DNA of 64,000 nt from Bacteroidaceae bacterium (GTDB lineage: Bacteria; Bacteroidota; Bacteroidia; Bacteroidales; Bacteroidaceae), in assembly GCA_017466325.1 (NCBI GenBank), contig JAFTUK010000037.1, forward strand, positions 42,374 through 106,373. The letters run 5' to 3'. The notes beneath the pieces were generated by a model. That model was not told the DNA's origin and did not search any database. It saw only the letters and a list, made by a program, of their open reading frames with translations. Position 1 is the stretch's first letter. Each line of letters opens with the position of its first letter. Below, piece by piece: positions 39,943-62,868 of this stretch. The position numbers and the translations under genes are program-made.

Positions 39943-41712
39943 ATGAATTCGAGATTAAGGTTCATATATTTCCTCCTTGGGGCATTCATATTATTCTCAT
40001 GCACTGACCAGCATGCAGAATCCATTATTACTAAGGCAGAACAGCTATTAAACACTAAGCCGGATTCTGCCCTTGCTGTACTTGATGATATCCGGGAAAG
40101 CAAGGAAGATTGGCCTCGTTCGCAACAGATGCGCTATGAGCTTGTCTATGCACAGGCACAGAACAAGGCATTTGTTAACTTTACCACAGATAGCATAGTT
40201 CTAAGTTTGGTGGACTATTATGGGCGCCATGGCAATGCCAACGAGCAGATGATGGCAAACTACATGGCTGGGTGTGCCTATAGAGATTTAGAGGATGCAC
40301 TTTCAGCACTGAAATATCTGAACTTGGCTGTAGATGCCGTTGACGAAAGCGATGAGGATTGCGATTTGAACACATTGATGCGTGTCTATAGCCAGATGGG
40401 AGGATTGTATCAGCGCGTTGCAGCGTTTGAGAACGATAGGGTGGCAAATTCTCACGCTGAACGATTGGCGTGGCAGATTGGCGATACTTTATCGACACTT
40501 CGTTTAAGGTGGGCACGGGCTTGTAGTCTATTTGAGGAAAAGAAACAATTGCAGGCAATCATGATTCTGGACAGTATAGATGCATTCATTCAGGATAATA
40601 AATTACAAGAATCGCCAATTCTCATTTATCCGATGAAAACTGATTACTATCTTGAAATTAAGGACATCAAAAGAGCAGAAACATTATTACGTGAATACGA
40701 ACATAAAACAGGTATTCTTACAGAAAGTATAGATGCCATTGTTTATGACATTGCTCACTTTCATCGCAAAGGACAATATTACAACCTTGTTCAAAATCCC
40801 GACTCAGCTATACAGATGTTCAACAAGTTGTTGTATCTCATTGGAAAACGTCCACTATATGCTTCAGAACGACACGGACTAATGGAAGTTTCCTATCGTG
40901 GTCTAACAGAAGCCTATTCACTCAAACATCAATCCGATTCTGTCATTAAGTATGCCTATCTTTATTGCTTATTTAATGATTCGCTAACGCGAGACAATTC
41001 TTCCGAAGATTTATTACGTCTGCAGTCACTATACAACTATACAAAGATTCAAGAGCAGGCCCTGAAAGCAGAGCAGAAGGCATCACGTCTTCGTGTAACA
41101 ATAATTTTGTTAGTGTTTTTCGTCACAGCCCTAGTCGTAGTATCATGGTCGATTTACCAGAAGCGACTGAAAAAAGAACGACAAAAACAGATAGCCACTA
41201 ACAAGGAGTATCAGTTGTTGTTACATAAACTAGAGAAATCTGCAGAGGAATTGCTATTAGTTAAAACAGATTCCGAGAGATTTCAAAGGGAAAAGGAGAG
41301 CGAAATACAGAAACTTCAAACGGCACTAAGCATGTATCAGGGCAATGTGCAGAATGTAGAGCAATGGAACAATGAACGCACTATCTTACAATGTGACCTT
41401 GTGCATCACCTGCACTCGTTGTCTGCACAAGGTAAAGTGGCAACTCAGGATGAATTAGATGGTTTAGTAACCATTGCCCAAAATGTTTTCCTAAAATTTC
41501 ACCAAACTATAACAGACCCCACAAAGAGGTTGTCAAATCGTGAAATTATTACATGTATATTGATTCGCTTTAAATTCATTCCTTCTGAAATAGCTGTACT
41601 GACAAACAATAGTTATCAACAGATAACCAATCTCAAGTCAACAATTAACAAAAAATTGTTCGATAAAAATGGTGCCAAAACGCTTGATTCTAATTTGATG
41701 TCTTTAAAATAA
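39943..41712 (+). CDS. Membrane-anchored TPR regulator lipoprotein
   Basis: The 589-residue protein has a lipobox LFSC with Cys20. A tetratricopeptide-type helical array (about residues 25-370) follows, then one transmembrane helix (about 383-403), a coiled coil (about 405-470) and a C-terminal domain resembling a HTH (IPSEIAVLTNNSYQQITNLKS). This layout is common in Bacteroidetes regulators that sense periplasmic signals and act on DNA across the membrane. It opens the peptide cluster and is closed by its own strong terminator, so it probably controls the downstream genes. The DNA-binding role is inferred. Confidence 0.72.
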   Translation: MNSRLRFIYFLLGAFILFSCTDQHAESIITKAEQLLNTKPDSALAVLDDIRESKEDWPRSQQMRYELVYAQAQNKAFVNFTTDSIVLSLVDYYGRHGNANEQMMANYMAGCAYRDLEDALSALKYLNLAVDAVDESDEDCDLNTLMRVYSQMGGLYQRVAAFENDRVANSHAERLAWQIGDTLSTLRLRWARACSLFEEKKQLQAIMILDSIDAFIQDNKLQESPILIYPMKTDYYLEIKDIKRAETLLREYEHKTGILTESIDAIVYDIAHFHRKGQYYNLVQNPDSAIQMFNKLLYLIGKRPLYASERHGLMEVSYRGLTEAYSLKHQSDSVIKYAYLYCLFNDSLTRDNSSEDLLRLQSLYNYTKIQEQALKAEQKASRLRVTIILLVFFVTALVVVSWSIYQKRLKKERQKQIATNKEYQLLLHKLEKSAEELLLVKTDSERFQREKESEIQKLQTALSMYQGNVQNVEQWNNERTILQCDLVHHLHSLSAQGKVATQDELDGLVTIAQNVFLKFHQTITDPTKRLSNREIITCILIRFKFIPSEIAVLTNNSYQQITNLKSTINKKLFDKNGAKTLDSNLMSLK

Positions 41713-41738
41713 GGCTTTACAAGTTCTCTTTAATATTT

Positions 41739-41789: not shown

Positions 41790-41865
41790 TGTAATATACT
41801 CATATATAGTCCTTTCGTGTAAAATATGTATTATGTGTCGTAAATGGCTGTATATCAATAACATA

Positions 41866-41992: not shown

Positions 41993-42367
41993 ATGAAAAA
42001 GTTTTCACTTAGTATCCTTTTTGGAATCATTAGTATTTTATCAATTTATGCATCATCCGAGATTGATTTTCCAATTATTGATCTTAAATGTTATAACAAG
42101 CGTCCGGCTGATGGGATAGTTCAATTAGGCCCAAGGACACTGGTTTCATCTCCTGTTGTTTATCAGGATAATTATAATTTAATATTTGAGACATCTGGAT
42201 TCTGTCACTCTGTAATTCTTATTGATGTACAGACTGATGAGGTCGTATACGAAACTATTGTCACAGAGTCTACAACACAGATAAGCCTTCCTGAATATCT
42301 TGAAGGTGAATATGAAATTAGATTCAACAGTGACAGATATTATTATTACGGTAATATTGAGTTATAA
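41993..42367 (+). CDS. DUF3244 domain-containing exported protein
   Basis: The 124-residue protein has a Sec signal peptide (residues 1-20) and a small beta-sandwich domain that ends in YLEGEYEIRFNSDRYYYYGNI, the pattern of Bacteroidetes DUF3244 proteins. They are exported or envelope proteins of unknown function, often found next to TPR or propeller genes. It follows a good promoter and lies between the regulator and the transglutaminase-like gene. Confidence 0.72.
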   Translation: MKKFSLSILFGIISILSIYASSEIDFPIIDLKCYNKRPADGIVQLGPRTLVSSPVVYQDNYNLIFETSGFCHSVILIDVQTDEVVYETIVTESTTQISLPEYLEGEYEIRFNSDRYYYYGNIEL

Positions 42368-44623: not shown

Positions 44624-44649
44624 TTCGATAACATAATAGATTTATAATT

Positions 44650-45183
44650 ATGAAGATAGTACATTACATAATGTTTGCAGTATTGATGGTTTTATCATCA
44701 TGCGGAAACAAGAAATATGCAGATGAAATTCTACAGTTGCAGTCCCGTCCCATAGACATGTCCTGCTGCAAGGATGCTGTCCTTATTGAAAATGGAGAGG
44801 AAACAAAATTTTGCGACAATGATTCTGCATACAAACTGATTATTTATATAGACTCTACATCATGCTCTCCATGTTTTATTTCGCACATGCAGGATTATAT
44901 GGAAGTTGTTAACGTCTTTGATTCGGCGGGTGTTAACACGCTGTTCATCTTTGAACCAACACAAAAACGTATGGAAGAAGTAACCATTGCACTAAGGCAA
45001 TTTGCATATCCAACAAAAGCTATAGTTGTGTCAAATGGGAATTTTTCCGCACATAATTCTCATATTCCATCGTCAGCTTTACTTCATAGTTTCTTGTTAA
45101 ACTCTGCCAACGCAGTAACAATTGTCGGTAATCCTCTAAGAAATGAGAAACTAAAAGAACTTATGTTAAACAATATAGAATAA
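44650..45183 (+). CDS. Thioredoxin-like lipoprotein (intact copy)
   Basis: The 177-residue protein has a lipobox LSSC followed by a thioredoxin-type domain: a strand IYIDSTSCSPCF with the redox-like pair Cys-x2-Cys, then an amphipathic helix and later strands. It is anchored to the envelope and could make or break disulfides in exported peptides. A hairpin and then an NVEALA-type peptide gene follow directly. A decayed paralogue lies at 47217-47751 with a nearly identical 3' half. Confidence 0.7.
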   Translation: MKIVHYIMFAVLMVLSSCGNKKYADEILQLQSRPIDMSCCKDAVLIENGEETKFCDNDSAYKLIIYIDSTSCSPCFISHMQDYMEVVNVFDSAGVNTLFIFEPTQKRMEEVTIALRQFAYPTKAIVVSNGNFSAHNSHIPSSALLHSFLLNSANAVTIVGNPLRNEKLKELMLNNIE

Positions 45184-45200
45184 CAAACATAACCATCATA

Positions 45201-45232: not shown

Positions 45233-45285
45233 TGTGGTGTAAATATCAATTGATTATTAACAATCACACGAACACCCTTATCATT

Positions 45286-45726
45286 ATGAGAAAAAAAGTT
45301 ATGATGCTGTCATGTATTGCAGCCGTTGCCATCGCTACATTCGTCAGTAATAAGGCTTATGAACTGCAGACAAATAAGTCTAACGATTTACTTATGCAAA
45401 ACATTGAGGCTTTAAGCCAGGGAGACGTAACAAACGGTTTTATTATGAAGATTAATCCTCTTTATACTAAAACATGTTACCAAAATTATTGTGACATAAA
45501 CGATTATATAACTGAACCCAATTATGATGAGGTTGCTAAAGAATATTACTCAATCAAAAGATACTATCATTCGTATCATAAATACACAAGGAAACAATGT
45601 GAGGTCCTGCCGATAGAAAATGCGCTAATGTGGTGGGAAAATTGTGATGTACCACAAAAATCTAAATGTAATCCTGGTGACACAGATAAGAAGCCAGTTC
45701 CTTATGAGTATTATGACAAAGTCTAA
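45286..45726 (+). CDS. NVEALA-type secreted peptide 1
   Basis: The start ATG 45286 was chosen because the signal peptide begins there; an in-frame extension to 45220 adds 22 non-signal residues. The 146-residue product has a basic start and hydrophobic core (KVMMLSCIAAVAIATF), then the family motif LLMQNIEAL, then a unique C-terminal part with five Cys and many Tyr (for example YCDINDYITEPNY). Only the first 40 residues resemble the other two peptides in this window. The leader resembles a signal and recognition region; the C-terminus is the likely exported product. Confidence 0.72.
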   Translation: MRKKVMMLSCIAAVAIATFVSNKAYELQTNKSNDLLMQNIEALSQGDVTNGFIMKINPLYTKTCYQNYCDINDYITEPNYDEVAKEYYSIKRYYHSYHKYTRKQCEVLPIENALMWWENCDVPQKSKCNPGDTDKKPVPYEYYDKV

Positions 45727-45935: not shown

Positions 45936-47057
45936 ATGAATAAAATACAATGTTTGATTGTTTTATGTTTGACATTGCTGTCCTCCTGTCAGAAAGGTGC
46001 AGTAAATGAGACAGAATCGCGGGAAATCATATTGACACCCCATTTCATAAAGGACGCGTTATCGTTATCTGACGAATTTACTGACATGGAAATAATCCAT
46101 TTTGAGAATAAGACAGAATGTATGCTGACGGATATCAAGAAAATTATGGTGACGGATGCCGGCATATATGTTTTTGATGCGTCCCCGTCACCACGTATTC
46201 TTGCATTTCGGCACGACGGCAGGTTCAAAAACAAGATTGGTGCCATGGGACATGCAAAAGGTGAATACCAGATGGTTATGAATGTTGGAGCTACGACCAA
46301 TGGTGATACCGTGGCTGTTGTCGGTTATCCGGATATATTGCTGTATGGCGCAAACGGGCGTTACCTGACTTCGCTCCCGCTGGAAAACAACAATGGGGTG
46401 GAGGATGTCCTTTTTACCAACGAGGGACTTTATCTGGGATATTTCCATCGACAAGAGAAAAGCATGATGAGCTTGTATGACAAAGGTACCATGAAACATG
46501 TCGCTGATATTATAGAAACACCCGTAGACCCTATAGGCACCCCTTTGGGTGTTGATAACGGCCATATTCTTCAAGAGGACTGCGACAAGGTCTATTGCTT
46601 AGATGTGCTCAATTCCTGTATTTATGTGAGTGACAAAAACACAGGGAAGGTTGTCAAATACACAATCGGACTGGATGAAATGTTGAAGGAGAAAGATGTA
46701 CGGGAAAAGGCTGACACGGAGGAAACGGCGTATCGCATCACCTCATATCAAGCGTGTGACGGCGTGATTCGAGGTGTAATCGACCATGGCGATGGGTATT
46801 ATGATTTTAAGTTTTCTCTATCCGGCAAGACCATAGACATTATGCATCATAACGATTTGAATTATTCGTTTGACTGCTGCCATTCGGATTGTTTCTATTT
46901 TCTTGTTTCTGCAAATATGCTTCTTGATTATATGAATAAGGATTACATGGATTCCATTAGAAAGATGCTTGGCAATACATTGGACGAGAGGAAAGGAAAT
47001 ATTTCTCCTACAGACAATTATTACCTTATCAAGATGCGTTTGAAGAGTAGTTCCTGA
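45936..47057 (+). CDS. 6-bladed beta-propeller lipoprotein 1
   Basis: The 373-residue protein has a lipobox LSSC followed by repeated beta-strand blocks of the 6-bladed propeller type. Typical phrases are HDGRFKNKIGAMGHAKGEYQMV and PSPRILAFRHDG near the start of the domain. These lipoproteins are widespread beside NVEALA-type peptide genes in Bacteroidetes, which suggests that they bind or process the peptides. Three non-identical copies exist in this window. Function is not established. Confidence 0.75.
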   Translation: MNKIQCLIVLCLTLLSSCQKGAVNETESREIILTPHFIKDALSLSDEFTDMEIIHFENKTECMLTDIKKIMVTDAGIYVFDASPSPRILAFRHDGRFKNKIGAMGHAKGEYQMVMNVGATTNGDTVAVVGYPDILLYGANGRYLTSLPLENNNGVEDVLFTNEGLYLGYFHRQEKSMMSLYDKGTMKHVADIIETPVDPIGTPLGVDNGHILQEDCDKVYCLDVLNSCIYVSDKNTGKVVKYTIGLDEMLKEKDVREKADTEETAYRITSYQACDGVIRGVIDHGDGYYDFKFSLSGKTIDIMHHNDLNYSFDCCHSDCFYFLVSANMLLDYMNKDYMDSIRKMLGNTLDERKGNISPTDNYYLIKMRLKSSS

Positions 47058-47216: not shown

Positions 47217-47751
47217 ATGAGAACTGTATATTACCTGTTTCTTGCATCATTGATGCTCTTATCCTCCTGCTGAAAGAAGAGCTTTGCCGATGAAATCTTG
47301 AAAATGCAGTCCCGACCTATAGACTTGAAAGCGTGCAAGGATGCAGTCTACCTTGAAAATGGAGTGGAGGCAGACTTCTGTGATGAAGATTCCGTGTACA
47401 AACTTATCCTCTACATTGACTCGGCATCCTGCTCTCCATGCTTTGTTTCGCACATGTATGACTATAAAAAAAACGGTTGAATACTTCGATTCTGCCGGAA
47501 TCAGGACGTTGTTCGTCTTTGAACCAACACAAAAACGTATGAAAGAAGTAACCATTGCACTAAGGCAATTTGCATAGCCAACAAAAGTTATAGTTGTGTC
47601 AAATGGGAATTTTTCCGCACATAATTCTCATATTCCATCGTCAGCTTTACTTCATAGTTTCTTGTTAAACTCTGCCAACGCAGTAACAATTGTCGGTAAT
47701 CCTCTAAAAAATGAGAAACTAAAAGAACTTATGTTAAACAATATAGAATAA
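47217..47751 (+). pseudogene. Decayed paralogue of the thioredoxin-like lipoprotein
   Basis: The reading frame matches the intact gene at 44650-45183 but has a TGA immediately after the lipobox Cys (SSC-stop-KK), one extra A in an A8 run near 47468 that shifts the frame, and a TAG near 47576. Correcting the +1 shift restores a continuous match to the end. The 3' half is nearly identical to the intact copy, the 5' half clearly diverged. It is not expected to make a functional protein. Confidence 0.85.
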
Positions 47752-47900
47752 CAAACATAACCATCATACAGGCAAGAATTAAAGTGCGTGTGCTTGCCTA
47801 TGTGGTGTAAATATCAATTGATTATTAACAATCACACGCACACCCTTATCATTATGAGAAGAAAAGTTATGATGCTGTCATGTATTGCAGCTGTTGCCAT
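47521..47900 (+). repeat. Recent segmental duplication of 44953-45332
   Basis: These about 350-380 bp align to 44953-45332 at a constant offset of 2568 bp without gaps, with about eight mismatches up to the peptide start codon. They include the end of the thioredoxin-like gene, the hairpin and the first codons of the peptide gene. Similarity drops quickly after the leader. Confidence 0.85.
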
Positions 47901-48165
47901 TGCAAGTTTTGTTGGCAAAAAGGCTTTCGAGCCACATGCATATGAGACTAACGACCTGCTCTTGCAAAATGTAGAAGCATTGGGATTTGATCGTGGAGAA
48001 TCCTGGAATCGCAAAGACTATGACTGTGTTGCAGTAACATGCCAGTGTATCTTTTTAAAATATCAATCCAAAAGCGCAGCTTTCGTTGGAGAAGGTAAAG
48101 GGTCAGTTGCACACATCTGGGAGTGCATTGGATGTGGCGATTGTGGATATACTGTCAATAAGTGA
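47854..48165 (+). CDS. NVEALA-type secreted peptide 2
   Basis: From ATG 47854 the product is 103 residues. The leader (RKVMMLSCIAAVAIASF) and motif LLLQNVEAL closely match peptide 1, but the C-terminal 60 residues are unrelated. They contain six Cys arranged CVAVTCQC and ECIGCGDC, typical of a disulfide-rich or metal-binding core. The gene follows the duplicated hairpin and the pseudogene, so it may have arisen by the same duplication with replacement of the core. Confidence 0.75.
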   Translation: MRRKVMMLSCIAAVAIASFVGKKAFEPHAYETNDLLLQNVEALGFDRGESWNRKDYDCVAVTCQCIFLKYQSKSAAFVGEGKGSVAHIWECIGCGDCGYTVNK

Positions 48166-48240: not shown

Positions 48241-49428
48241 ATGAAAAAAGTTTTGAATATAATGCTGATGTGCTGTGTTTTATGTAGTTGTCACGACAAA
48301 ACCCATAAAACGTTGAAACAGGCAGAAGCATCTATGCCGGTAGACAAGGCTGATTCTATTTTAGAATGGCCTAAGGCAAGCACGGTGTCATATGAAAGTC
48401 TAATCGAAAATGAAATGGATTCAGTGGTAGTACTGCCTTTGCAAGAGAAGTCTGGACAGATGCTCGGACAGATTGTGCAAATACAGCACCTAAATGACAC
48501 ACTGGTAATTTCAGATAACAAACGTGTTTGTCTATACAACTCAGAAGGAGAATATCTTTCATCAATTGGTGCGGTTGGACATGGGCCAAATGAGTATTTA
48601 AGTTTGGGTGGTATGTACATAGTTGAGGATAGTATTTACATAAAGGATGCTGGAGTTGGTCGTATCCTCACGTATAACGTGGACGGGAAACTAACCAATA
48701 CCAGAAATTTTGCTGATGGAGCACCACAAGAATTCTGTATATTAAATGATGGTATAGTATTAGGTGCATACTCTGGATACAGGCCGAATTCTCTTTTCCG
48801 TTTAGTTGTATTTGATGCGAAAATGGATATTATGGGAACGTCATTCCCCTATACCGAACCACAAGAATATGTAGCAGGGCGCTTTATTAAACAGCAGCAT
48901 CAAGATGCGCTGTTTGCATATCCTTTATGTGACACCATATTCAAGGTAACCGCAACAAAAGTCACTCCGGTCATCTGTATGAATCTTCAAGACAATCAAG
49001 TTGTATCGGATTTTATTGATGAGACTTCAGATATGTCTCAAGAAAAGTTTATACAAAAACTTTATGGAACAGACAAATTGGTAAATGAGGTAGAAGTTTA
49101 TCCATATCATGAAGGATGGTTTTTGTATTATCAAAATTCAAAAGGATCATATTATTCATTCGTAAATAGCCAGCAAAGGAAAGACTATGTCCGCAGTGAT
49201 ATAGAGAAGCAGAAATTGTACTACCCTTTTTCCATCATATCTTTAAAAGACAATTGGGTGTATGGTTATATTGACCCATCCTCTCTTTCATATATGGATG
49301 CTGATTCAAGAAACAAATGGATGGTATATATTAAGGATCACGCATTACGCCCCCTATCTGATTTGGACATAAAAAATGCTATACCTTTGGTTGTTAAAAT
49401 GCATATTCGACAAGGGGGATCTATATAG
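48241..49428 (+). CDS. 6-bladed beta-propeller lipoprotein 2
   Basis: The 395-residue protein has a lipobox LCSC near the start and propeller blade motifs (VCLYNSEGEYLSSIGAVGHGPNEYLSL and RILTYNVDGKL). It resembles the first propeller only in fold pattern. It is 75 bp after peptide gene 2. A strong hairpin follows it, perhaps ending the transcript before the signal-peptidase gene. Confidence 0.75.
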   Translation: MKKVLNIMLMCCVLCSCHDKTHKTLKQAEASMPVDKADSILEWPKASTVSYESLIENEMDSVVVLPLQEKSGQMLGQIVQIQHLNDTLVISDNKRVCLYNSEGEYLSSIGAVGHGPNEYLSLGGMYIVEDSIYIKDAGVGRILTYNVDGKLTNTRNFADGAPQEFCILNDGIVLGAYSGYRPNSLFRLVVFDAKMDIMGTSFPYTEPQEYVAGRFIKQQHQDALFAYPLCDTIFKVTATKVTPVICMNLQDNQVVSDFIDETSDMSQEKFIQKLYGTDKLVNEVEVYPYHEGWFLYYQNSKGSYYSFVNSQQRKDYVRSDIEKQKLYYPFSIISLKDNWVYGYIDPSSLSYMDADSRNKWMVYIKDHALRPLSDLDIKNAIPLVVKMHIRQGGSI

Positions 49429-52985: not shown

Positions 52986-54113
52986 ATGAAAAAGTACTTG
53001 ATTGCGATTGTAACTATAAGCATGTTACTCACTGCATGTAGAAAGGAAAATAAGTTGCTAGAGGCTCAAATTACCATTCCTGTAGCGATGGAGCAGTTCC
53101 AAAAGGATTATCCTTTCGCAGAGAAATTTCACTATTCCAAGTTAATACCTTTGGAAACAACGGAGCAATGCAGAATAGGCGACATACAAAGGGTGTTCTC
53201 AGTTGATTCGTCTTTCGTTGTATGGGATGGTAAGAAAGTTGCGCTATTCGACTCGGACGGATCGTATATATCCAACGTCGGACATCAAGGAAGGGCTTCC
53301 AATGAATACATGCGAATTTCTGATGTTAATGTAGATTATAATACCAAGGAAATATATTTGCTGGATAACTCATCACTAAAGATATTGGTATATGGTATTC
53401 GTGGAGATTTCAAAAGGAGAATCTCCATGAAAAACTATGCTACCGGCTTCTTACTTACACATAATCAACTTTGGTTGGAGAATTACGCGTTGGACGGAGC
53501 TGGCAAGATGCTTTTATGTACAGATATCAATACAAATGAAATCCAACAGGGATATTTCCCATTCCTTGATGGGGAAAAAATGCCGATACGTAAAGAAAAG
53601 TCATTTTTTTGGGGTGATAGTGTAGCGTTGTTTGCATCGTCGTATATGAATACAATATATAAGATAGCCGGCGATGAGATTACTCCTTATGTAAAAATTA
53701 ACTTCCTGGACAATAAGGCAGACGAGAGCAACGATATGACAAAAACTAAGTTTTTCCAGAAGATTGCAGAGGAGAACTATATAGGCTACGTAAAGGATGT
53801 CTATCAAGTAAATTCTTACTTGTTCTTTTCTTTTAACAGGAACAATGCGGGCGACACAAGCAGCGAATTTCATGTTTGTTACAATATGGACAGCCGGGAT
53901 GTGGATATATATGATTTCTCTTTACTTCATGATTCCCGTATTCCTGTGTCTCCGTCAAGTAACATAATAGGGGTTTATGGGGATGGAGTGATATTCAGTC
54001 TGGACATTTCCGCTTTACCCGATTTTCTCTTGAAGAAATTAAAGGAGAATACAGGTCTGGAAAATTTGAACAATAGTTCAAATCCAATACTAATACTATA
54101 TGATGTAGATTGA
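52986..54113 (+). CDS. 6-bladed beta-propeller lipoprotein 3
   Basis: The 375-residue protein has a lipobox near LTAC at the start and propeller motifs VALFDSDGSYISNVGHQGRASNEYM and ILVYGIRGDFKRR. It is paired with peptide gene 3, giving the same peptide-plus-propeller arrangement as the other two sets. Function is unknown. Confidence 0.75.
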   Translation: MKKYLIAIVTISMLLTACRKENKLLEAQITIPVAMEQFQKDYPFAEKFHYSKLIPLETTEQCRIGDIQRVFSVDSSFVVWDGKKVALFDSDGSYISNVGHQGRASNEYMRISDVNVDYNTKEIYLLDNSSLKILVYGIRGDFKRRISMKNYATGFLLTHNQLWLENYALDGAGKMLLCTDINTNEIQQGYFPFLDGEKMPIRKEKSFFWGDSVALFASSYMNTIYKIAGDEITPYVKINFLDNKADESNDMTKTKFFQKIAEENYIGYVKDVYQVNSYLFFSFNRNNAGDTSSEFHVCYNMDSRDVDIYDFSLLHDSRIPVSPSSNIIGVYGDGVIFSLDISALPDFLLKKLKENTGLENLNNSSNPILILYDVD

Positions 54114-54158: not shown

Positions 54159-55625
54159 ATGCGCAAAACCATCTTATTCATTGTCACCTTTATTCTGGCG
54201 ATGCCCTCGCGTGCCAGCATCTATATGTCGCTCTCCGAAGCCATCCGCCTGGCGCAGGAGCATTCGCTGGAGGCCCAAATGGCGCGGTTCTCCTTCCTGG
54301 CCAGCTACTGGACGTACCGTTCCTACCGTGCCGAGCTGCTGCCTTCGGCCTCGCTGTCGGGTTCCCTGCTGAACTACGACCGCTCGGTCACCAGCGTGCG
54401 CAACTACGACGACGGACGCATCAACTACGTGGAGAACAACTCGCTGAGCAACTCGCTCACGCTGTCGGTCAGCCAGAACATCGTGCCCACGGGCGGCACG
54501 GTGTCGCTGCAGTCCTATCTCTATCATCTGGAGCAGTTCAACTACGACCTGCGTACCTTCAACACCCAGCCCCTGCGCCTGATTTACGACCAGCCCCTGC
54601 GGGCGTTCAACTCCCTGAAGTGGCGTGGCAAGTCGGAACCGGTGGCCTATGAGCGTGCCAAGCGGCAGTACCTGGAGACCATGCAGAACATCGCCGTGAC
54701 AGTGACGAGCCATTACTTCTCCGTACTGTCCGCCCAGTCCGACTACAGGCAGTCCGTGGCCACCGCAGAGGAGCGCAGTCGCCTCTACGAGCAGACGAAG
54801 AAGCGTTTCGCCCTGGGCACCGTGCCGAAGAGCGACCTGCTGCAGCTGGAACTGTCGGCCATCAACGCCCGCGTGTCCGTGAAGCGCGACCGCCTCTCGC
54901 TGGACGACGCACGCTTCATGCTGTTCACCTACCTGCAGGCCGTGAAGTGGGACGATGTGGAGCTGCTGGCCCCCGACGACATTCCCGACATGGTTCTGGA
55001 CGGGGACGAGGTGATGCAGCGTGCCATGACGGCCTCTACCCATCCGATGACACAGAAGCTCTCGCTGATCGAGTCGCAGCGGAGCCTGGCACAGGCCAAG
55101 GCGCAGCGCGGCATCCGGCTGGCCATCCACAGCGAACTGGGACTGCGCAACACGGCCGACCGCATCGGCGACGCCTACAGCCGCCTGCAGGACAACGAGG
55201 TCGTGGGCCTCACCCTCTCGCTGCCCGTCTTCGACTGGGGCGTGAGCAAGGGGCGCGTGCGCATCGCCAAGGCCAACCTGGACGTGGTGAAGACGCAGAT
55301 CGAGCATAACGACATCGAATATGAGCAGACCATCAAGAAGCTGGTGATGCAGTTCAACCTGCAATACGAGCAGTGCCGCGACGCCGCCCGTGCCGAGGAG
55401 ATAGCCGACGAGCGGTATGCGCTCAGCGTGCAGCGCTTCGAGGCCGGCAGCATCAGCGTGACCGAGTTGAACACGGCGCAGCAGGAGAAGGAGTCGGCGC
55501 GTGCGCAATACATCAGCCAGCTGCGAACATATTGGAGTAACTACTACAACATACAACGCCATACGCTTTGGGATTACGTGAATAATCATGAAATAACAAC
55601 CGATTTTGATAAATTAACAAAATGA
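54159..55625 (+). CDS. TolC-family outer-membrane protein 2
   Basis: The 488-residue protein has a signal peptide (residues 1-20) and the two-repeat OEP pattern. The second-half motif RFEAGSISVTELNTAQQEKESAR is typical. It is markedly GC-rich, unlike the propeller gene before it and the adaptor gene after it, although both ends of the gene drift back to AT-rich. Its last codons overlap the adaptor start (ATGA). It would be the outer-membrane channel of the RND exporter that follows. Confidence 0.88.
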   Translation: MRKTILFIVTFILAMPSRASIYMSLSEAIRLAQEHSLEAQMARFSFLASYWTYRSYRAELLPSASLSGSLLNYDRSVTSVRNYDDGRINYVENNSLSNSLTLSVSQNIVPTGGTVSLQSYLYHLEQFNYDLRTFNTQPLRLIYDQPLRAFNSLKWRGKSEPVAYERAKRQYLETMQNIAVTVTSHYFSVLSAQSDYRQSVATAEERSRLYEQTKKRFALGTVPKSDLLQLELSAINARVSVKRDRLSLDDARFMLFTYLQAVKWDDVELLAPDDIPDMVLDGDEVMQRAMTASTHPMTQKLSLIESQRSLAQAKAQRGIRLAIHSELGLRNTADRIGDAYSRLQDNEVVGLTLSLPVFDWGVSKGRVRIAKANLDVVKTQIEHNDIEYEQTIKKLVMQFNLQYEQCRDAARAEEIADERYALSVQRFEAGSISVTELNTAQQEKESARAQYISQLRTYWSNYYNIQRHTLWDYVNNHEITTDFDKLTK

Positions 55626-56707
55626 GACACTTTTCAGCCATAGTGGCAACTCTTATTCTATTTACTGCTTGCGACAAATCCAATGAAATTAAAGAGGATG
55701 ACCGTATTAAGCGTGGGCAGGTAGAACTGACCGAGAACTACGTAGACACCATGACGCTATGCTTAACGGACTTCCAGCGCGAGGTTGTATGTAATGGTCA
55801 TTTGTACGCTAAAATAAAAACACAATTGGTTCCGCGTCACACAGATGCTATCACATCTATCAACGTGCGCGAAGGGGAATGGGTAGAGAAAGGTACACTG
55901 CTGGCTGTAACAGATGAAATGCAATATACCCGTGAGGTAGAGCGTGCAGAACGTGATGTAGAGAAAACACGTGTGGATCTGGCAGACAAACTGATTACAA
56001 TGGGTTATAATGTGGATACTGACTTGACACCACAGGGTGATATTCCTGATGATATTCTTCGCCGTGCAGAGATAATATCAGGGCACTATGCAGCACGTTA
56101 CCAATTACAAACTGCACGTCAGAATCTGGATGATTGCCGGTTGAGAGCTCCTGCTACGGGGCGCATAGCGGATATCACAGCGCAACTACACCAACGTGCT
56201 GATAAATTCTGCTATATAATAGATGATACGGAGTTTGATGTGAAATTCAGTGTATTGGAAGCCGAGTTGGCAATGATACATAAAGGGCAGCGCGTGAAGG
56301 TCAGTCCATTTACAGACGATAGTCTGGTAGTAGTCGGACGTATTGTGAGTATCAACCCATCCGTAAACGAAAATGGAATGATAAAAGTGACAGCTAGAGT
56401 GAACGGCAGAGCAGGATTGTTAGATGGTATGAATGTGCGCGTGGTAGTGGAACGCAATGTCCCTCGCATGTTTGTTGTGCCAAAGGATGCTGTTGTAGAG
56501 CGCGATGGATATAATGTTATTTTCCTTTATAATAAGGGCTACGCTAGCTGGACCTATGTAGATATATTACATAGTAATATCAATAGCCATGCTATCACGG
56601 GATGCTCCAGAAAGGACACCAAGCTCCATGAAGGGGATATTGTTATAACAAGCGGTAATATGAACCTTGCTGATGACACGAAGGTGGAACTGAAACATAA
56701 AAGTTAG
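55622..56707 (+). CDS. HlyD/AcrA-type periplasmic adaptor lipoprotein
   Basis: The 361-residue protein has a lipobox FTAC at Cys16 and the adaptor layout: lipoyl (TSINVREGEWVEKGTLLAV), an alpha-hairpin (about residues 95-150), a second lipoyl (CRLRAPATGRIADITAQ) and beta-barrel domains. It overlaps the TolC stop by ATGA. A 116-bp gap separates it from the first RND pump gene. It probably couples both pump subunits to the TolC channel. Confidence 0.85.
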   Translation: MRHFSAIVATLILFTACDKSNEIKEDDRIKRGQVELTENYVDTMTLCLTDFQREVVCNGHLYAKIKTQLVPRHTDAITSINVREGEWVEKGTLLAVTDEMQYTREVERAERDVEKTRVDLADKLITMGYNVDTDLTPQGDIPDDILRRAEIISGHYAARYQLQTARQNLDDCRLRAPATGRIADITAQLHQRADKFCYIIDDTEFDVKFSVLEAELAMIHKGQRVKVSPFTDDSLVVVGRIVSINPSVNENGMIKVTARVNGRAGLLDGMNVRVVVERNVPRMFVVPKDAVVERDGYNVIFLYNKGYASWTYVDILHSNINSHAITGCSRKDTKLHEGDIVITSGNMNLADDTKVELKHKS

Positions 56708-56823: not shown

Positions 56824-59800
56824 ATGCTTAAAAAGCTTATACTACGTCCCATTGCCGTAAGCATGTTTGTATTGGCATTGGCAATCATTGGCGTTTTGTC
56901 TTCACGTCAGTTGCCCGTATCGCTAATGCCAGACATTGACATACCGCAGATAACTGTCCACGCATCATATCCTGGAGCATCTGTGCGTCAAGTGGAAAAT
57001 AAGGTGACTGGACCATTACGAGGCCAACTTGCACAAGTACCAGGACTGAAATCTCTAGATAGTGAAAGTCGCATGGACGCCTCTACAATAAAACTGACCT
57101 TCGAACCTGGGAGCGACATGGATCTTTTGTTTATTGAAGTGGGTGAAAAGATAGACCGAACCATGTCGTGGCTACCTAAAGAAATAGAACGTCCTAAGGT
57201 TGTGAAGGCTAGTTCCATGGATATCCCAGCCTTCTTCCTGGACATCTCGCTGAAAGATAGCACAGCAGGTAAGGAGCGTTTTGTGCAACTATCACAATTT
57301 GCACAGAGTGTAGTTCGTAAACGCATAGAGCAATTACCACAGACAGCAATGGTTGACGTGAGCGGTACAGAAGGTGCTGAGATTGTGTTAATACCACGCC
57401 CTGAACGCATGGATGCTCTTGGAATCACTCCTCAGCATATAGAGCGATCCATTAAAGCGCATGACATCACACTGACATCGCTAAGCATAGTGGATGGCAT
57501 ATACCGATATAACATACACTTCGATGCCACATTGCTGACTGACGATGATATTCGGGATATTGTTCTCAGTCACGACAACCGTCTATTGCGTTTAGGGGAC
57601 ATATGTGAGGTGAAGTTCCGTTCTTCTAATAGTACTGGCGGTCTGATACGTCATAACGGACGTCGTGCTGTGACAATGGCTGTTGTTAAACAACCACAAG
57701 CAAAAATGGAGGAGCTGCAAGCAAGCATTGATACACTCGTAGTTGACTTAAGCATGGAGTTTCCAGACATTGCTTTTGATCTTACCCGTGACCAAACGCA
57801 ACTCTTGACATATTCCATGGACAACCTGAAAGAAAACTTCGTCCTGGGAGCATTATTGGCATGTCTTGTGCTATTCGTGTTTATGCGCAGTGTAAGGTTG
57901 CCGTTACTTATAATCATTAGCATACCATTGTCACTTATACTGACTCTGCTGTCATTTTACATTATAAATATATCGCTCAATGTTATCAGCTTGTCTGGTC
58001 TAATATTGGGCGTAGGCATGATTGTGGATAATTCCATTATTGTGATAGATAACATACGTCAACGTTTGCAATGCGAAGAATTAGATACTGCTGTGGTAAA
58101 GGGGGCCAAGGAGGTATTCATGCCAATGTTGTCATCGGTACTAACCACCTGCTCGGTGTTCATTCCGCTGATATTTCTTAATGGAACAGCAGGTGAACTG
58201 TTTTACGACCAAGCCATTGCTGTCACAATAGCCCTATTTTCGTCTTTGCTAGTAGCTGTCATTGTGATACCTGTATACTTTAGGCTCTTCTTTAAGAAAG
58301 CGGTGATAAGTGAACACAAGGGTACTGATGTATTTGTGTCGCTCTATTCCGTTATGCTAAAGTTCACCTTCCGGCACGCAAGGATGATGATTTCCGTTTT
58401 CCTCATTGCTGTGATTAGTTCGGTATTTCTGTTTATGGCATTACGTAAAGAGCAATTACCCGACATGCCACATGAGGACACAATGATGACCATCGATTGG
58501 AACTTAGGTATCTCAGAACAGGAGAATGACCGACGTGTCCTAGAACTGCTTGCTACTTTGGACAGTACCTTGCAGACCAGTACAGCCATGGTGGGCGCAC
58601 AGACATTCCTGCTTTCACATACAAAGGATATTACGGCCACAGAGGCTGTTGTGTATATGAAGTTTAGTGATGAGAAAGAACGCTTGAAGGCAGAACAACA
58701 CTTAACGAAGACATTGGCAGAACAATACCCACGTGCGCAAGTGAAATATGAAACTGTGGGAAGCCTTTTGGACGTAATATTTCGTTCGGATGAAAGCCGT
58801 CTAACCATCCAATTACAGAACAACAGCGGTGGCAGACCATCTGTGAAACAAGCACGGTGCTTCATTGACTCGTTACACCAAGCGTTCCCGCTCCTTACGG
58901 TCCAACCTGTAGTTGCAGACAAGACCATTGAATACAAGGGGCGTCTTGAGCGTATGGCTGTGTATGGTGTTACTTACGATAATCTGCTTCAAGAGCTACG
59001 CAAAAAGGTGGGACAGCGTCGTGTATTTAGTATCAGCGACGGTTCTGCTATGGTACCAGTAGTAATCAATGATGAGATACCCGACAAAAGTGTTGTGCTG
59101 GCTTCTACGATAACTGTCGGTGGTACATCCATTCCACTGCATCTCCTTGTAAAAACAGGCGAAGGCGAGGATTTCAAGCGATTGAACTCTGGACAGTCTG
59201 GTGAATATTATCCTATTCACCTGGATTGCGACGACAAAACAGCACATGAGGTTATGAACTGGGTACAAGAGTTTATGGCTCGTGATAAGATACAAGAAGA
59301 GCCTTTGGGGTTACAAGCCTCGTTTACCGGCGACTATTTTAGTAGCCGTCAATTGGTGAGTGAACTGCTTATTGTCCTCTCTGTGGCATTAGCATTGCTG
59401 TACTTCATTTTGGGTGCACAGTTTGAAAGTCTGATACAGCCATTCATTATCCTAAGCGAGATGGTGTTGGATGTTGCATTGGTTTTCCTTGTTTTGTGGT
59501 TAATGAACGAATCTCTAAATATTATGTCCATGATAGGAATAGTGGTTATGGCTGGTATTGTCATCAACGACTCAATCCTAAAGGTGGATACCATTAATCG
59601 TCTGCGTCGCAGTGGTATGTCTACGCTAACGGCTATCATTAAAGCAGGTCATAAACGTCTGCGTCCTATCGTAATGACATCACTGACTACTATTTTGGCT
59701 ATTCTGCCATTGCTCTCTCGTGCTGACATGGGCAGTGCCTTGCAATATCCGCTTTCACTCACCTTGGTTGTGGGCATGATCATTGGCACTATGGTAAGCT

Positions 59801-59844
59801 TATTTTTTGTACCACTGGTATATTATATAATTTACAAAAAGTGA
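56824..59844 (+). CDS. RND-family efflux pump subunit 1 (AcrB/MdtB-like)
   Basis: The 1006-residue protein has the RND duplicated topology: 12 membrane spans in two halves and two large periplasmic loops, starting with LLKKLILRPIAVSMFVLALA-like RND sequence. In TM4 the proton-relay pair is GMIVDNSIIVIDN, so the first Asp is kept and the second is Asn. The domains match the hydrophobe-amphiphile group. It would be paired with the second RND gene. Confidence 0.85.
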   Translation: MLKKLILRPIAVSMFVLALAIIGVLSSRQLPVSLMPDIDIPQITVHASYPGASVRQVENKVTGPLRGQLAQVPGLKSLDSESRMDASTIKLTFEPGSDMDLLFIEVGEKIDRTMSWLPKEIERPKVVKASSMDIPAFFLDISLKDSTAGKERFVQLSQFAQSVVRKRIEQLPQTAMVDVSGTEGAEIVLIPRPERMDALGITPQHIERSIKAHDITLTSLSIVDGIYRYNIHFDATLLTDDDIRDIVLSHDNRLLRLGDICEVKFRSSNSTGGLIRHNGRRAVTMAVVKQPQAKMEELQASIDTLVVDLSMEFPDIAFDLTRDQTQLLTYSMDNLKENFVLGALLACLVLFVFMRSVRLPLLIIISIPLSLILTLLSFYIINISLNVISLSGLILGVGMIVDNSIIVIDNIRQRLQCEELDTAVVKGAKEVFMPMLSSVLTTCSVFIPLIFLNGTAGELFYDQAIAVTIALFSSLLVAVIVIPVYFRLFFKKAVISEHKGTDVFVSLYSVMLKFTFRHARMMISVFLIAVISSVFLFMALRKEQLPDMPHEDTMMTIDWNLGISEQENDRRVLELLATLDSTLQTSTAMVGAQTFLLSHTKDITATEAVVYMKFSDEKERLKAEQHLTKTLAEQYPRAQVKYETVGSLLDVIFRSDESRLTIQLQNNSGGRPSVKQARCFIDSLHQAFPLLTVQPVVADKTIEYKGRLERMAVYGVTYDNLLQELRKKVGQRRVFSISDGSAMVPVVINDEIPDKSVVLASTITVGGTSIPLHLLVKTGEGEDFKRLNSGQSGEYYPIHLDCDDKTAHEVMNWVQEFMARDKIQEEPLGLQASFTGDYFSSRQLVSELLIVLSVALALLYFILGAQFESLIQPFIILSEMVLDVALVFLVLWLMNESLNIMSMIGIVVMAGIVINDSILKVDTINRLRRSGMSTLTAIIKAGHKRLRPIVMTSLTTILAILPLLSRADMGSALQYPLSLTLVVGMIIGTMVSLFFVPLVYYIIYKK

Positions 59845-59853
59845 TATTGCCTG

Positions 59854-62800
59854 ATGCGAATAAGTAACTTCTCAGTCCTTCTCACTGCCTGTATTCTGCT
59901 TATTATAGGCATTGCTCTCACACCATTAATCGATGTGGGGGCAAAGCCTCGTCCACGACAAGGACATGAACTATGGATAACCTATAGTTGGAACGGTGCG
60001 TCAGCAAAGGTAATAGAGCAAAACGTGACAGCACCAATAGAGGGCATGATGGTGTCCGTACGCGGTGTGGAAAATGTGGAATCGGAATCCCGGTTCGGAA
60101 ATGGATGGGTAAAAGTCACTTTAAAACCTGATGTAAAGGTCTTTGCAGTAAGATTCGAAATAGCTTCGTTGTTGAGGCAATTACGAAACAAATTGCCAGA
60201 TGGTGTCAGTACTCCTACATTGTCGGGAGGTAACATTGTTAACAATACACGAAAACAGAATGACGAGACTGTTCATCTTCTATCCTACACCATTAGCAGC
60301 AAATTAAATTCCGCGCAGTTGCAGGACTATGTGCAGAAAAATGTACAACCTACTCTGCAGCAAAATGAACATGTCAAATGGGTAACCGTGTCGGGAGGTG
60401 TGGGACGTTACCTGGAAGTATCATATGACCCCTTGCTATTGCAAGCGTGTGGTCTCAACTCGTCTGATATTGACAATGGACTTAAGTCTTTTATCGGACG
60501 TAACGAGATTGTTGGCGACGTAATACATGATAGTGCGCGTGTCACGTTAAGGTTGGCCACTGAGAATTTCAAACGTCCTTTGGAACAGATGCCCATTAAG
60601 AGCAAAGATGGACATATTACCTATATGGGGAACTTAGCTCAATATGAGTACCGCAACTATGAACCTTCTTCCTATTATCGCATAAACGGTAATGAGACAG
60701 TGAGCTTGAATATCTACGTAAATGCCAATGCTAATCTCATCAAATTAGCCCAAAAATTGCGTGAACAGATAAATAAGATGCAGCCCAAACTGCAACATGA
60801 GGTGAAGTTAGAACTCCAACATGATTCATCTGAGGAACAACAAGGTGAGCTTAATAGACTAATCACCCGTAGCCTAATGTCATTGATGATACTTTTGGTA
60901 TTCGTGTTCATGGTGCGACCAGGATGGAAATATGTCAGCATCGTTGCCATTACTTTGGCCGTATGTCTTGCAGTTGCAATAATATGCTATTATCTGTTCA
61001 ACTTGCGTCTACATGTCTTCTCTATCGCTGGTATCACTGTGTCATTGGGGTTGATTATAGATGCCTCTATCGTGATGATAGACCACTATAGCTATTATCG
61101 CAACCGTAAGGTATTTATGGCTATTTTGGCTGCACTTCTTACTACGATAGGCACGTTGGTAGTAATTCTGTTTGCTCCAGAAAATTTAAAGCATGATCTG
61201 TACGACTTTGCATGGATTATCATAATCAATCTGACAGTGGCTCTGTTCGTAGCCATAGCTTTTGTGCCAGCCTTAGTAGACTGCATGCAATTCCGCACCA
61301 ATTGTTCCACTCACATTTTCTCACGTCAACAGCGATTCTTGGCATATTGGACAGGCCTCTACGCCAAATATATTAAACTTCCTATAAGATGGTCGCGTAA
61401 GAAACGTATACTTATCTATTCTCTACTTTTGTTGCTTTACATAGGATCCTTCGGTGGATCTGCCTACCTGTTCTCTAAATCCATGGATGGTGCATCTTGG
61501 CCTCGTGAAGAAGAGGAGATGAAACTATATGTAAGAGCACAGATGCCTTTAGGGGGTACAGCCACACAATTAAACGCCAAGGTAAAGGTATTAGAGGAAA
61601 TGCTAATGGGCGAGAAGGACATTAAGCGTTTTGAGACATGGGTGAACAACAATGGTGCCAATATCACGATTCAATTTAGTCCAGAAGCCCTACATACATC
61701 TGCACCATATCAAGTGGAGAACCGTGTTATAGGGCGAGTCATAGGTATTGGCGGTGCTGATTGGAGTACGTATGGAGTCAGTCAGCGTGGATTCAGCAAC
61801 TCGCTTAACTTACAATACCGTTCTAATCGTATAGAACTGACTGGTTACAACTACGACCGCCTTTATCGCTATGCACAGGATCTTTGTGATTTGTTAACCC
61901 AAAATCCCCGTGCTGTGGACGTAACAATAGTGACTCCAGGACATGAGAATCAGGAGGATGAATATTATGTGCGCTACAATTGGGATAGATTGAGACTACT
62001 TAACATTACGCCAGAACAAATTCACTCGGCAGTAAACGATCTACTACAGACATGGAATTTCGGTCGATACGACCCACTTAATACCAACATCATCATCAAG
62101 TCCACGCGACGCGATACGCACGATGTGTGGCATCTATTCAACTCCTACGTGAAGATTGGTGACAAGGACATTCGTCTAAACGAGGTAATGGATATTCAGC
62201 AACGTGAAGCCAAAAACGTAATTCCACGACGTAATCAAGAATATGTATTGCGCGTGGAGTTCAATATCCTTGGTTCCTATATTTATACCAGCAACTATAT
62301 TAAGGAGGTGACGGAAAAGATGGAAAAACGTCTGCCAGTAGGATTTCGCTGCATGCGTCCACAATGGACAGACCGTCCTACAGCCATGGAACAATACTGG
62401 TTGATAGCACTCTGTATTCTCATTACATATTGGTTAATGACCATACTCTTTGAGAGTCTTTGGCGTCCTCTTGCCATGTTGCTTGCTCTCATGCCATTCA
62501 CGCTTACTGTTGTTTTCCTTGCGTTCTATCTTGTTGGTATACCATTTGGTACAGGTGGACTTGCTGCACTGGTGCTTCTGTGCGGATTAGTCATCAACGC
62601 CGCCATTTATATAATGTCTCAATACGATTTGATTCGTAAAAACAATACTGTAAGCCCGTTTCGTGCCTATTTGCAGGCTTACAATCACAAAATTGTTCCA
62701 GTCATACTGACAATCCTTTCAACAGTATTATCGCTCATCCCCTTCCTGCTAGACGGTAGTGAAAACCGTTTTTGGTATACCTTTGCTATCACCATTATTG

Positions 62801-62868
62801 TTGGTTTGACGGCCTCACTATTCGCCTTAGTGTTTATAATGCCATGGTGGGTGAGATTTAAAAGATGA
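59854..62868 (+). CDS. RND-family efflux pump subunit 2 (AcrB/MdtC-like)
   Basis: The 1004-residue protein has the same topology as subunit 1 but only low similarity, and starts 9 bp after it, so it is likely a heteromeric partner, as in MdtBC. In TM4 the motif is GLIIDASIVMID, again with one Asp. The C-terminus ends close to RFKR. Two different RND pumps in one operon suggest a heterotrimer with asymmetric function. Confidence 0.85.
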   Translation: MRISNFSVLLTACILLIIGIALTPLIDVGAKPRPRQGHELWITYSWNGASAKVIEQNVTAPIEGMMVSVRGVENVESESRFGNGWVKVTLKPDVKVFAVRFEIASLLRQLRNKLPDGVSTPTLSGGNIVNNTRKQNDETVHLLSYTISSKLNSAQLQDYVQKNVQPTLQQNEHVKWVTVSGGVGRYLEVSYDPLLLQACGLNSSDIDNGLKSFIGRNEIVGDVIHDSARVTLRLATENFKRPLEQMPIKSKDGHITYMGNLAQYEYRNYEPSSYYRINGNETVSLNIYVNANANLIKLAQKLREQINKMQPKLQHEVKLELQHDSSEEQQGELNRLITRSLMSLMILLVFVFMVRPGWKYVSIVAITLAVCLAVAIICYYLFNLRLHVFSIAGITVSLGLIIDASIVMIDHYSYYRNRKVFMAILAALLTTIGTLVVILFAPENLKHDLYDFAWIIIINLTVALFVAIAFVPALVDCMQFRTNCSTHIFSRQQRFLAYWTGLYAKYIKLPIRWSRKKRILIYSLLLLLYIGSFGGSAYLFSKSMDGASWPREEEEMKLYVRAQMPLGGTATQLNAKVKVLEEMLMGEKDIKRFETWVNNNGANITIQFSPEALHTSAPYQVENRVIGRVIGIGGADWSTYGVSQRGFSNSLNLQYRSNRIELTGYNYDRLYRYAQDLCDLLTQNPRAVDVTIVTPGHENQEDEYYVRYNWDRLRLLNITPEQIHSAVNDLLQTWNFGRYDPLNTNIIIKSTRRDTHDVWHLFNSYVKIGDKDIRLNEVMDIQQREAKNVIPRRNQEYVLRVEFNILGSYIYTSNYIKEVTEKMEKRLPVGFRCMRPQWTDRPTAMEQYWLIALCILITYWLMTILFESLWRPLAMLLALMPFTLTVVFLAFYLVGIPFGTGGLAALVLLCGLVINAAIYIMSQYDLIRKNNTVSPFRAYLQAYNHKIVPVILTILSTVLSLIPFLLDGSENRFWYTFAITIIVGLTASLFALVFIMPWWVRFKR

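What the first reader, a model, noticed from the sequence alone, without database searches (positions are those of the whole stretch)
39943..62868. NVEALA-type peptide production and export cluster with its own regulator, redox, peptidase and RND exporter
Seen in sequence: a 23-kb same-strand cluster has three short secreted proteins sharing only a leader and the motif (N/I)VEAL, three propeller lipoproteins, an S26 signal peptidase, a thioredoxin-like lipoprotein, a MauE-like protein, a transglutaminase-like lipoprotein, an O-antigen-ligase-like protein, a TPR regulator and a TolC-HlyD-RND-RND set. Established: NVEALA proteins and 6-bladed propellers co-occur in Bacteroidetes, but their products and functions are poorly described. 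Inference: the cluster makes, oxidises, cleaves and exports small Cys-rich peptides, perhaps bacteriocin-like or signalling molecules.
Basis: partly seen in the sequence, partly recalled or inferred. Interest (0 to 1): 0.9.

Follow-up and report, generated by a model that had tools for sequence, protein, structure and literature searches.

The report
Gut bacteria's swappable secreted peptide cassettes
Many gut Bacteroidales carry a gene set that seems to make small disulfide-bonded peptides, cut them free at the shared "NVEALA" box and export them, each peptide inherited with its own partner lipoprotein and swapped between strains, as expected for weapons with matching immunity or for signals with matching receptors.

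Summary
The gene set is as described and is one instance of a recurring system. In 151 Bacteroidaceae genomes the NVEALA peptide family and a distinct short S26 peptidase co-occur (29 both, 7 and 7 alone, 108 neither; p=5e-18). Of 45 such S26 ORFs, NVEALA precursors lie within 22 kb of 37, propellers 38, redoxins 38, an O-antigen-ligase-like gene 37, RND exporters 30. Twenty housekeeping LepB loci from the same genomes have no precursor and no ligase-like gene, and five weak RND hits. The NVEALA box reads as a signal-peptidase site: -1 is A/S/T/G/C in 145 of 146 precursors, median 24 residues past the hydrophobic stretch. Beyond it the peptides are hypervariable and Cys-rich, mostly with even Cys counts. 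Most are followed by a propeller lipoprotein, and the two are inherited as a pair: 13 of 13 cross-genus peptide matches have matching propellers. In a near relative five machinery genes are 78-84% identical while slot peptides and propellers are about as different as unrelated ones. My reading: secreted polymorphic peptides with cognate, probably protective, lipoproteins.

The parts
39943..41712 (+). TPR lipoprotein with a transmembrane segment and a long C-terminal region, candidate regulator
   Evidence: ORF; weak TPR_8 hit; relatives by phmmer in L087, L097 and L037 (own contig)
41993..42367 (+). DUF3244 secreted protein
   Evidence: PF11589, 26 vs cut-off 25 bits
42506..44623 (+). transglutaminase-like lipoprotein
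   Evidence: lipobox Cys28, Cys254 and His287 invariant in 16 of 16; near relative 82% identical
44650..45183 (+). thioredoxin-like lipoprotein with CSPC
   Evidence: sequence; relatives in 38 of the loci then searched
45286..45726 (+). NVEALA precursor 1 (leader 45286-45417; box NIEALS 45400-45417)
   Evidence: PF14055 19.8 bits; leader model 2e-13
45936..47057 (+). propeller lipoprotein 1, partner of precursor 1
   Evidence: DUF5128 4e-15; position and pairing analysis
47217..47751 (+). broken second copy of the redoxin gene (approximate ends)
   Evidence: DNA alignment to 44646-45401; frameshifts and an in-frame stop
47854..48165 (+). NVEALA precursor 2 (leader 47854-47985; box NVEALG 47968-47985)
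   Evidence: no Pfam hit; leader model 6e-12
48241..49428 (+). propeller lipoprotein 2
   Evidence: DUF5128 4e-31
49565..50449 (+). dedicated S26 signal-peptidase-like enzyme; Ser46 and Lys119 invariant in 16 of 16
   Evidence: PF10502 2e-29; alignments A2, A3
50422..51948 (+). O-antigen-ligase-like membrane protein with a C-terminal repeat region
   Evidence: Wzy_C 27.5 bits, below cut-off; alignment; residues
51957..52418 (+). MauE-like membrane protein
   Evidence: PF07291 5e-11
52598..52894 (+). NVEALA precursor 3 (leader 52598-52726; box NIEALA 52709-52726)
   Evidence: PF14055 23.3 bits; leader model 3e-11
52986..54113 (+). propeller lipoprotein 3
   Evidence: DUF5128 2e-29
54159..55625 (+). 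TolC-type outer-membrane channel
   Evidence: OEP 3e-36
55622..56707 (+). HlyD/RND adaptor lipoprotein
   Evidence: HlyD_3 1e-12; RND_mfp 7e-35
56824..59844 (+). RND permease 1
   Evidence: ACR_tran 2e-164; an Asp at the TM4 motif
59854..62868 (+). RND permease 2
   Evidence: ACR_tran 3e-86; an Asp at the TM4 motif

Best explanation
This is a modular system for secreted polymorphic peptides. Each precursor has a common leader (basic N terminus, hydrophobic helix, about 24 residues, then a box ending in A-x-A-like residues) and a hypervariable Cys-rich cargo. Proposed steps: (1) the leader inserts in the inner membrane through Sec (inferred); (2) cargo cysteines are paired in the periplasm with the redoxin lipoproteins and, where present, the MauE protein (inferred; supported by even Cys counts); (3) the cluster's own S26 peptidase cuts after the NVEALA box (inferred; supported by the -3/-1 residue pattern and co-occurrence); (4) TolC-HlyD-RND expels the cargo from the periplasm (inferred from linkage); (5) the propeller lipoprotein encoded next to each peptide is its cognate partner (co-inheritance shown), most likely self-protection, so that peptide and propeller act as toxin and immunity between related strains (inferred). 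The ligase-like and transglutaminase-like proteins would modify or release the peptide (unknown). Peptide-propeller cassettes are exchanged while the machinery stays.
For: Co-occurrence of NVEALA and cluster-type S26 in 151 genomes: 29/7/7/108, odds ratio 64, p=4.7e-18. Scores are bimodal: 43 rows at 172 bits or more, the next 102. Within +-10 kb of 45 S26 ORFs: NVEALA 36, propeller 37, redoxin 35, ligase-like 35, TGase-like 30, HlyD 24, RND 23, TolC 22, MauE 14; 20 same-genome housekeeping LepB loci: NVEALA 0, ligase-like 0, TGase-like 0, redoxin 0, propeller 1, RND 5 at 5e-17 or weaker. Of 7 genomes with S26 but no Pfam NVEALA hit, 4 have a clear NVEALA-like precursor at the S26 locus and a fifth a weak one without the box. 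Box: position -1 A105 S30 T6 G3 C1 P1, -3 A143 V3 of 146; A-x-A within reach of the hydrophobic stretch in only 3 of 146. Even Cys in 68 of 97, p=9e-5, 99 non-redundant cargos. Cognate pairs: 28 matched cross-genome pairs, propeller similarity 0.53 vs 0.07 after within-genome shuffling, maximum 0.21 of 1000; 13 of 13 cross-genus pairs in the top 1%, 0 of 5000 shuffles; two of four plasmid peptides match chromosomal pairs, with matching propellers. Near relative L118: machinery 78-84%, slot propellers 23-29%, slot cargos 24-33% identical. Recombination tract 350 of 360 bases between flanks near 75%.
Against: No experiment, proteomics or structure. The cut position is a pattern, not a measured site. 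Linkage alone could keep peptide and propeller together without binding. Counter-examples: one L118 peptide matches L058 at 0.49 but the propellers only at 0.10; another L118 propeller matches L080 at 0.37 although the peptides do not (0.16). Across all 5762 cross-genome pairs the overall correlation is small (Spearman 0.04), the effect being in matched pairs. RND is absent within 22 kb of 15 of 45 S26 ORFs (some at contig ends), and no RND is annotated in the 40.8-kb plasmid stretch seen. Two of 7 test genomes showed no precursor. Seven genomes have NVEALA without the cluster-type S26 score (one of them, G067, has a truncated match and the machinery). Cargos are mostly acidic (mean net charge -1.9), unlike cationic pore formers. 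Orphan peptide-propeller pairs occur without machinery (26 loci).
Confidence: 0.5

Rival explanations
1. Peptide signalling: the exported peptides are pheromones and the propellers, perhaps with the TPR protein, are their cognate receptors; polymorphism defines signalling groups.
For: Cognate pairing and polymorphism fit signal and receptor equally well; a candidate TPR regulator lies at the start of the window cluster; cargos are mostly acidic rather than cationic.
Against: The TPR protein was found at 6 of 45 S26 ORFs (may undercount). Propellers are predicted lipoproteins with no obvious signalling domain, and 84 of 202 have no precursor directly upstream, which fits spare immunity genes better.
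Confidence: 0.25
2. Two-subunit envelope proteins: the Cys-rich peptide is the small subunit of a complex with the propeller, matured by MauE/redoxin as in methylamine dehydrogenase, with no export of free peptide.
For: Cys-rich small protein, propeller and MauE/thioredoxin in one operon resemble the mau genes. A passage of PMC7794033 says MauE is thought to act in disulfide formation of the beta-subunit; that the large subunit is a propeller is recalled.
Against: Cargo sequence is hypervariable, with no residue conserved beyond Cys that could be catalytic in the aligned positions seen; an exporter set accompanies many clusters; MauE is present at a minority (14 of 45).
Confidence: 0.15
3. Surface or adhesin-like display: the propeller carries the variable peptide to the cell surface for antigenic variation or attachment, using the recombination seen between copies.
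For: Cassette exchange and multiple copies per genome (up to 21 PF14055 matches in one genome; tract).
Against: None of 95 lipobox-bearing partner propellers has three or more acidic residues after the Cys; but four SusD-like controls have only one or two, so the test is weak. It gives no role to S26 release or RND.
Confidence: 0.1

Closest known systems
PF14055 NVEALA family (name only; no function known to me)
   Same: Leader, box and small Cys-containing cargo; PGAP calls the plasmid relatives 'NVEALA domain-containing protein'
   Different: The window members score below the Pfam cut-off; the family entry describes no system. No paper in the held library contains the word NVEALA
E. coli heat-stable enterotoxin STII route (Sec, DsbA, MacAB-TolC)
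   Same: Small disulfide peptide matured in the periplasm, then expelled by a tripartite pump (passages of PMC5985334)
   Different: ABC-type MacAB rather than RND; no dedicated peptidase, cognate lipoprotein or cassette array (partly recalled)
Class II microcins and bacteroidetocins (double-glycine leader, C39 peptidase ABC exporter; recalled)
   Same: Conserved leader, variable cargo, dedicated processing and export, expected self-protection
   Different: A-x-A-type box and S26 peptidase instead of Gly-Gly and C39; RND instead of ABC; propeller lipoprotein partner
BcpT/BcpI of Phocaeicola vulgatus
   Same: Bacteroidales toxin with a lipoprotein immunity protein encoded directly downstream (PMC9308784, section 6 and passages)
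   Different: BcpT is a 499-aa lipoprotein activated by secreted proteases, not a small Cys-rich peptide; BcpI is a small protein, not a propeller
Methylamine dehydrogenase maturation (MauD/MauE)
   Same: Thioredoxin-like plus MauE beside a Cys-rich small protein (passage of PMC7794033)
   Different: Hypervariable cargo, S26, RND, no other mau gene looked for here

Membership tests
PF14055 NVEALA | Score above the curated cut-off | tested here: not met
   19.8, none and 23.3 bits vs 27; relatives in other genomes do pass (28 of 151 genomes)
PF14055 NVEALA | Leader and [N][VI]EAL box | tested here: met
   Leader model 2e-13, 6e-12, 3e-11 (window peptides are in the training set)
Signal peptidase I (S26) | Family profile and catalytic Ser/Lys | tested here: met
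   PF10502 2e-29, TIGR02227 97 vs 47 bits; Ser46 and Lys119 invariant in 16 of 16 (their catalytic role is recalled)
Signal peptidase I (S26) | Same group as the housekeeping LepB | tested here: not met
   Separate score class, 172 bits or more vs 102 or less, open frames about 300 vs 480-520 aa in most rows; no tree was built
Double-glycine bacteriocin / class II microcin | Gly-Gly leader and C39 ABC exporter | tested here: not met
   No Gly-Gly at the box; no ABC exporter among the 17 window proteins scanned
O-antigen ligase (Wzy_C/WaaL) | Pfam cut-off and the His of the HN motif (motif recalled) | tested here: not met
   27.5 vs 31.7 bits; 0 of 28 aligned members have His at the motif, mostly F/Y-N
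Transglutaminase-like | Conserved Cys and His of the core | tested here: met
   Invariant in 16 of 16; third residue not identified, fold not predicted
Toxin with cognate immunity | One-to-one linked inheritance | tested here: met
   with exceptions
Toxin with cognate immunity | Toxicity and specific protection | not testable with these tools
   Needs bench work
Tripartite RND efflux | TolC, adaptor and RND permease with TM4 Asp | tested here: met
   substrate unknown

The most novel reading that the evidence does not exclude
A previously undescribed, Bacteroidales-wide interbacterial peptide weapon or recognition system: cargos with interchangeable sequence are released from a membrane leader by a dedicated signal-peptidase-like enzyme that recognises the NVEALA box, expelled from the periplasm by an RND pump, and neutralised or read by a cognate beta-propeller lipoprotein, with peptide-propeller cassettes moving between genera and on plasmids.
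Probability: 0.35. Interest if true: 0.92.

Novelty: new variant of a known kind. Interest (0 to 1): 0.78.

Why it matters
NVEALA peptides and 6-bladed propellers are among the uncharacterised envelope proteins of common gut bacteria, some present in tens of copies per genome. If the reading holds, it turns a Pfam name into a cleavage site, gives the propellers a function, adds an RND-based route for peptide secretion, and names a candidate class of strain-level competition or recognition factors in species such as Phocaeicola vulgatus, where it can be tested with gene removals.

Tried and rejected
The phylum-wide S26 search (296 genomes) did not discriminate: outside the family ordinary short LepB proteins reach 206 bits with that profile. 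The lipoprotein surface-signal test was too weak to use. Signal-anchor versus normal signal peptide was judged only by motif counts; 49 of 146 leaders have a loose small-x-small site near the hydrophobic stretch, 3 have A-x-A. The first control had no RND; the second has 5 of 20 weak RND hits. Rejected as main reading: drug efflux alone (does not explain the peptides), ordinary sugar-utilisation locus (no SusC/SusD call among the cluster proteins). Paper searches that found nothing on the system: (NVEALA, 0 papers); the library holds only open-licence PMC papers.

Rows dropped before counts: 14 of 160 precursors without a motif hit by my pattern (some are cut ORFs or variants such as NIDANA, TSDANA and TSDVHA); 110 of the 146 precursors entered the pairing test, the rest lacking a downstream propeller or sharing one. 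The propeller model was partly trained on the 24 unlabelled partners (23 then match it). The 45 S26 ORFs include one gene split in two (G054) and two fragments of 155 and 161 aa. The 13 cross-genus pairs fall in about 8 independent peptide families.
Full report
1. The observation. The 23-kb block is real: 17 same-strand coding genes plus one broken gene run from the TPR protein to the second RND permease. Pfam confirms three DUF5128 propellers, S26, MauE, TolC, HlyD and two RND proteins; the O-antigen-ligase-like call is below cut-off, and the transglutaminase-like and redoxin calls rest on motifs and alignments. Two of the three small proteins hit PF14055 below cut-off, the third does not. 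The window lies in a 2.59-Mb genome in 56 contigs, 88% complete, and ends at the contig end.

2. It is a recurring system. PF14055 was found in 36 of 151 Bacteroidaceae genomes at E<=1e-3, up to 21 matches in one genome. I fetched the neighbourhoods and saw repeated modules of precursor, propeller and redoxin with S26, ligase-like, transglutaminase-like and TolC/HlyD/RND genes. The genome's own second copy on contig C17 (L035) has nearly the same set. A profile of the cluster S26 separates two classes in the same 151 genomes: 43 rows at 172 bits or more and ordinary LepB at 102 or less. Genomes with the first class and genomes with PF14055 overlap in 29 of 36 each; 108 have neither (p=4.7e-18).

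3. A test not used to build the set. Seven genomes had the S26 class but no PF14055 hit. A leader model trained on other loci found precursors beside S26 in four (E 9e-13 to 2e-5) and a weak one without the box in a fifth (0.018); two had none. Of the seven genomes with PF14055 only, G067 turned out to have a truncated S26 with ligase-like, RND and TolC genes.

4. Neighbours and controls. Of 45 S26 ORFs (44 loci; two are fragments), within 22 kb: NVEALA 37, propeller 38, redoxin 38, ligase-like 37, transglutaminase-like 33, RND 30, HlyD 30, TolC 29, MauE 14, TPR 6. Many stretches are cut by contig ends. Within 10 kb: 36, 37, 35, 35, 30, 23, 24, 22, 14 in the same order without TPR. Twenty housekeeping LepB loci of cluster-bearing genomes: no NVEALA, ligase-like, transglutaminase-like, redoxin, MauE, TolC or HlyD hit, one propeller, five weak RND hits. 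Fifty-six generic LepB loci from mostly other taxa: none of these except 3 redoxin, 1 HlyD and 1 propeller hit. Twenty-six orphan NVEALA loci without the S26: propeller 26, redoxin 9, transglutaminase-like 5, RND 3, HlyD 3, TolC 1, ligase-like 1.

5. The leader and the box. In 146 precursors with a motif hit, the residue after NVEAL is A105 S30 T6 G3 C1 P1; this position was not part of the pattern. The position two before it is A143 V3, but the pattern allowed only A, S or V there. The next position varies (D, S, Q, G, N). The end of the hydrophobic stretch lies a median 24 residues before the site. Among 134 distinct leaders the result is the same. Divergent precursors with a divergent S26 (L114) have ANA and VHA at the matching place, and two of a termite-type locus have ANA (L138). 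This is the -3/-1 rule of signal peptidase I (recalled) at an unusual distance from the helix. The S26 keeps Ser46 and Lys119 in 16 of 16. That this enzyme cuts there is inference.

6. The cargo. Median 40 residues; Cys is 7.7% of the cargo against 1.2% of the leader. Among 99 non-redundant cargos, 68 of 97 with any Cys have an even number (0.70 against 0.48 expected at random; p=9e-5), and the mean net charge is -1.9.

7. The partner. Of 146 precursors, 92 are followed within 450 bp by a propeller, 23 more by a protein that matches a wider propeller model partly trained on them; 6 by a redoxin, 1 by the ligase-like gene, 1 by another protein, 23 by no ORF of 250 aa or more. In 110 pairs from 36 genomes, cross-genome pairs with similar cargo (28 of 5762) have propeller similarity 0.53; shuffling propellers within genomes gives 0.07, maximum 0.21 in 1000. 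Restricted to different genera: 13 of 13 in the top 1% of propeller similarities, 0 of 5000 shuffles reach the mean; these fall in about 8 independent peptide families. With dissimilar leaders: 10 of 10. Leaders go with the genome, cargos with the propeller. Counter-examples and the small overall correlation (0.04) are. Of 202 propellers 84 have no precursor directly upstream.

8. Exchange. A near relative (L118, an uncultured Prevotellaceae) has the same order with transglutaminase-like, S26, ligase-like, MauE and TolC (N-terminal part) at 82, 78, 80, 80 and 84% identity, its redoxin at 55%, but slot propellers at 27, 23 and 29% and cargos at 33, 24 and 30%, leaders 61, 61 and 37%. Inside the window, 44940-45299 and its copy are identical at 350 of 360 bases while flanks are about 75%: the tract runs from the end of the redoxin gene into the leader and stops before the cargo. 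Plasmids of P. vulgatus CL10T00C06, P. dorei CL06T03C03 and two of P. massiliensis carry the S26; on the first two PGAP annotates NVEALA, propeller, O-antigen ligase and transglutaminase genes beside it. Two of four peptides of the P. vulgatus plasmid match chromosomal pairs of another genome (G126), propellers included.

9. How it most likely works, and against what. See Best explanation: leader insertion, disulfide pairing, S26 cut, pump export, cognate propeller. Shown: co-occurrence, residue pattern, Cys parity, co-inheritance, cassette replacement. Inferred: each biochemical step and the antagonistic purpose. The STII route gives a precedent for periplasmic disulfide peptides leaving by a tripartite pump (passages of PMC5985334), BcpT/BcpI one for a lipoprotein immunity protein in these bacteria (PMC9308784), and a genome-mining paper places mauE in candidate peptide clusters (passage of PMC7794033).

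10. Novelty. No paper in the held library has the word NVEALA, and searches with family names and component words found nothing on the system. In kind it resembles leader-peptide clusters with processing, export and a partner; its parts (box, S26, RND, propeller) match none of those I know, so I file it as a new variant and keep the categorical reading in the section on the most novel reading.

Noticed in passing
window 26000-39742: GC falls from about 55% to about 38% near 26 kb; upstream of the cluster lie DnaG-like, Clp-protease-like and HEPN genes and a P-loop protein at 36496-38151 without a Pfam hit, perhaps remnants of a phage or other mobile element. Not tested further.
   Followed up: no
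window 50422-51948 and 54159-55625: The two 2-kb steps holding the ligase-like and TolC genes have GC of 52-55% while most of the cluster is 38-44%.
   Followed up: no
L112 and L113 (G047:C9, G061:C4): Redoxin, S26 and transglutaminase-like genes together without any NVEALA precursor or exporter in 20 kb.
   Followed up: partly
L114 and L138: Precursor-like proteins whose box reads TSDANA, TSDVHA or SEANA instead of NVEALA.
   Followed up: partly
L144 (Prolixibacteraceae): Several RND genes interleaved with propellers and one NVEALA hit.
   Followed up: no
NZ_CP043609.1 (Bacteroides fragilis plasmid): A single NVEALA protein on a plasmid typed as mobilizable or not by PLSDB (five records in all).
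   Followed up: no
28 aligned ligase-like proteins: The His of the recalled HN motif of O-antigen ligases is absent in 28 of 28, so the chemistry may differ.
   Followed up: partly
Phocaeicola vulgatus ATCC 8482: A faint, in the passages seen unexplained, inhibition zone is reported for this strain (PMC9308784 section 6), which carries a full NVEALA cluster (L134).
   Followed up: partly
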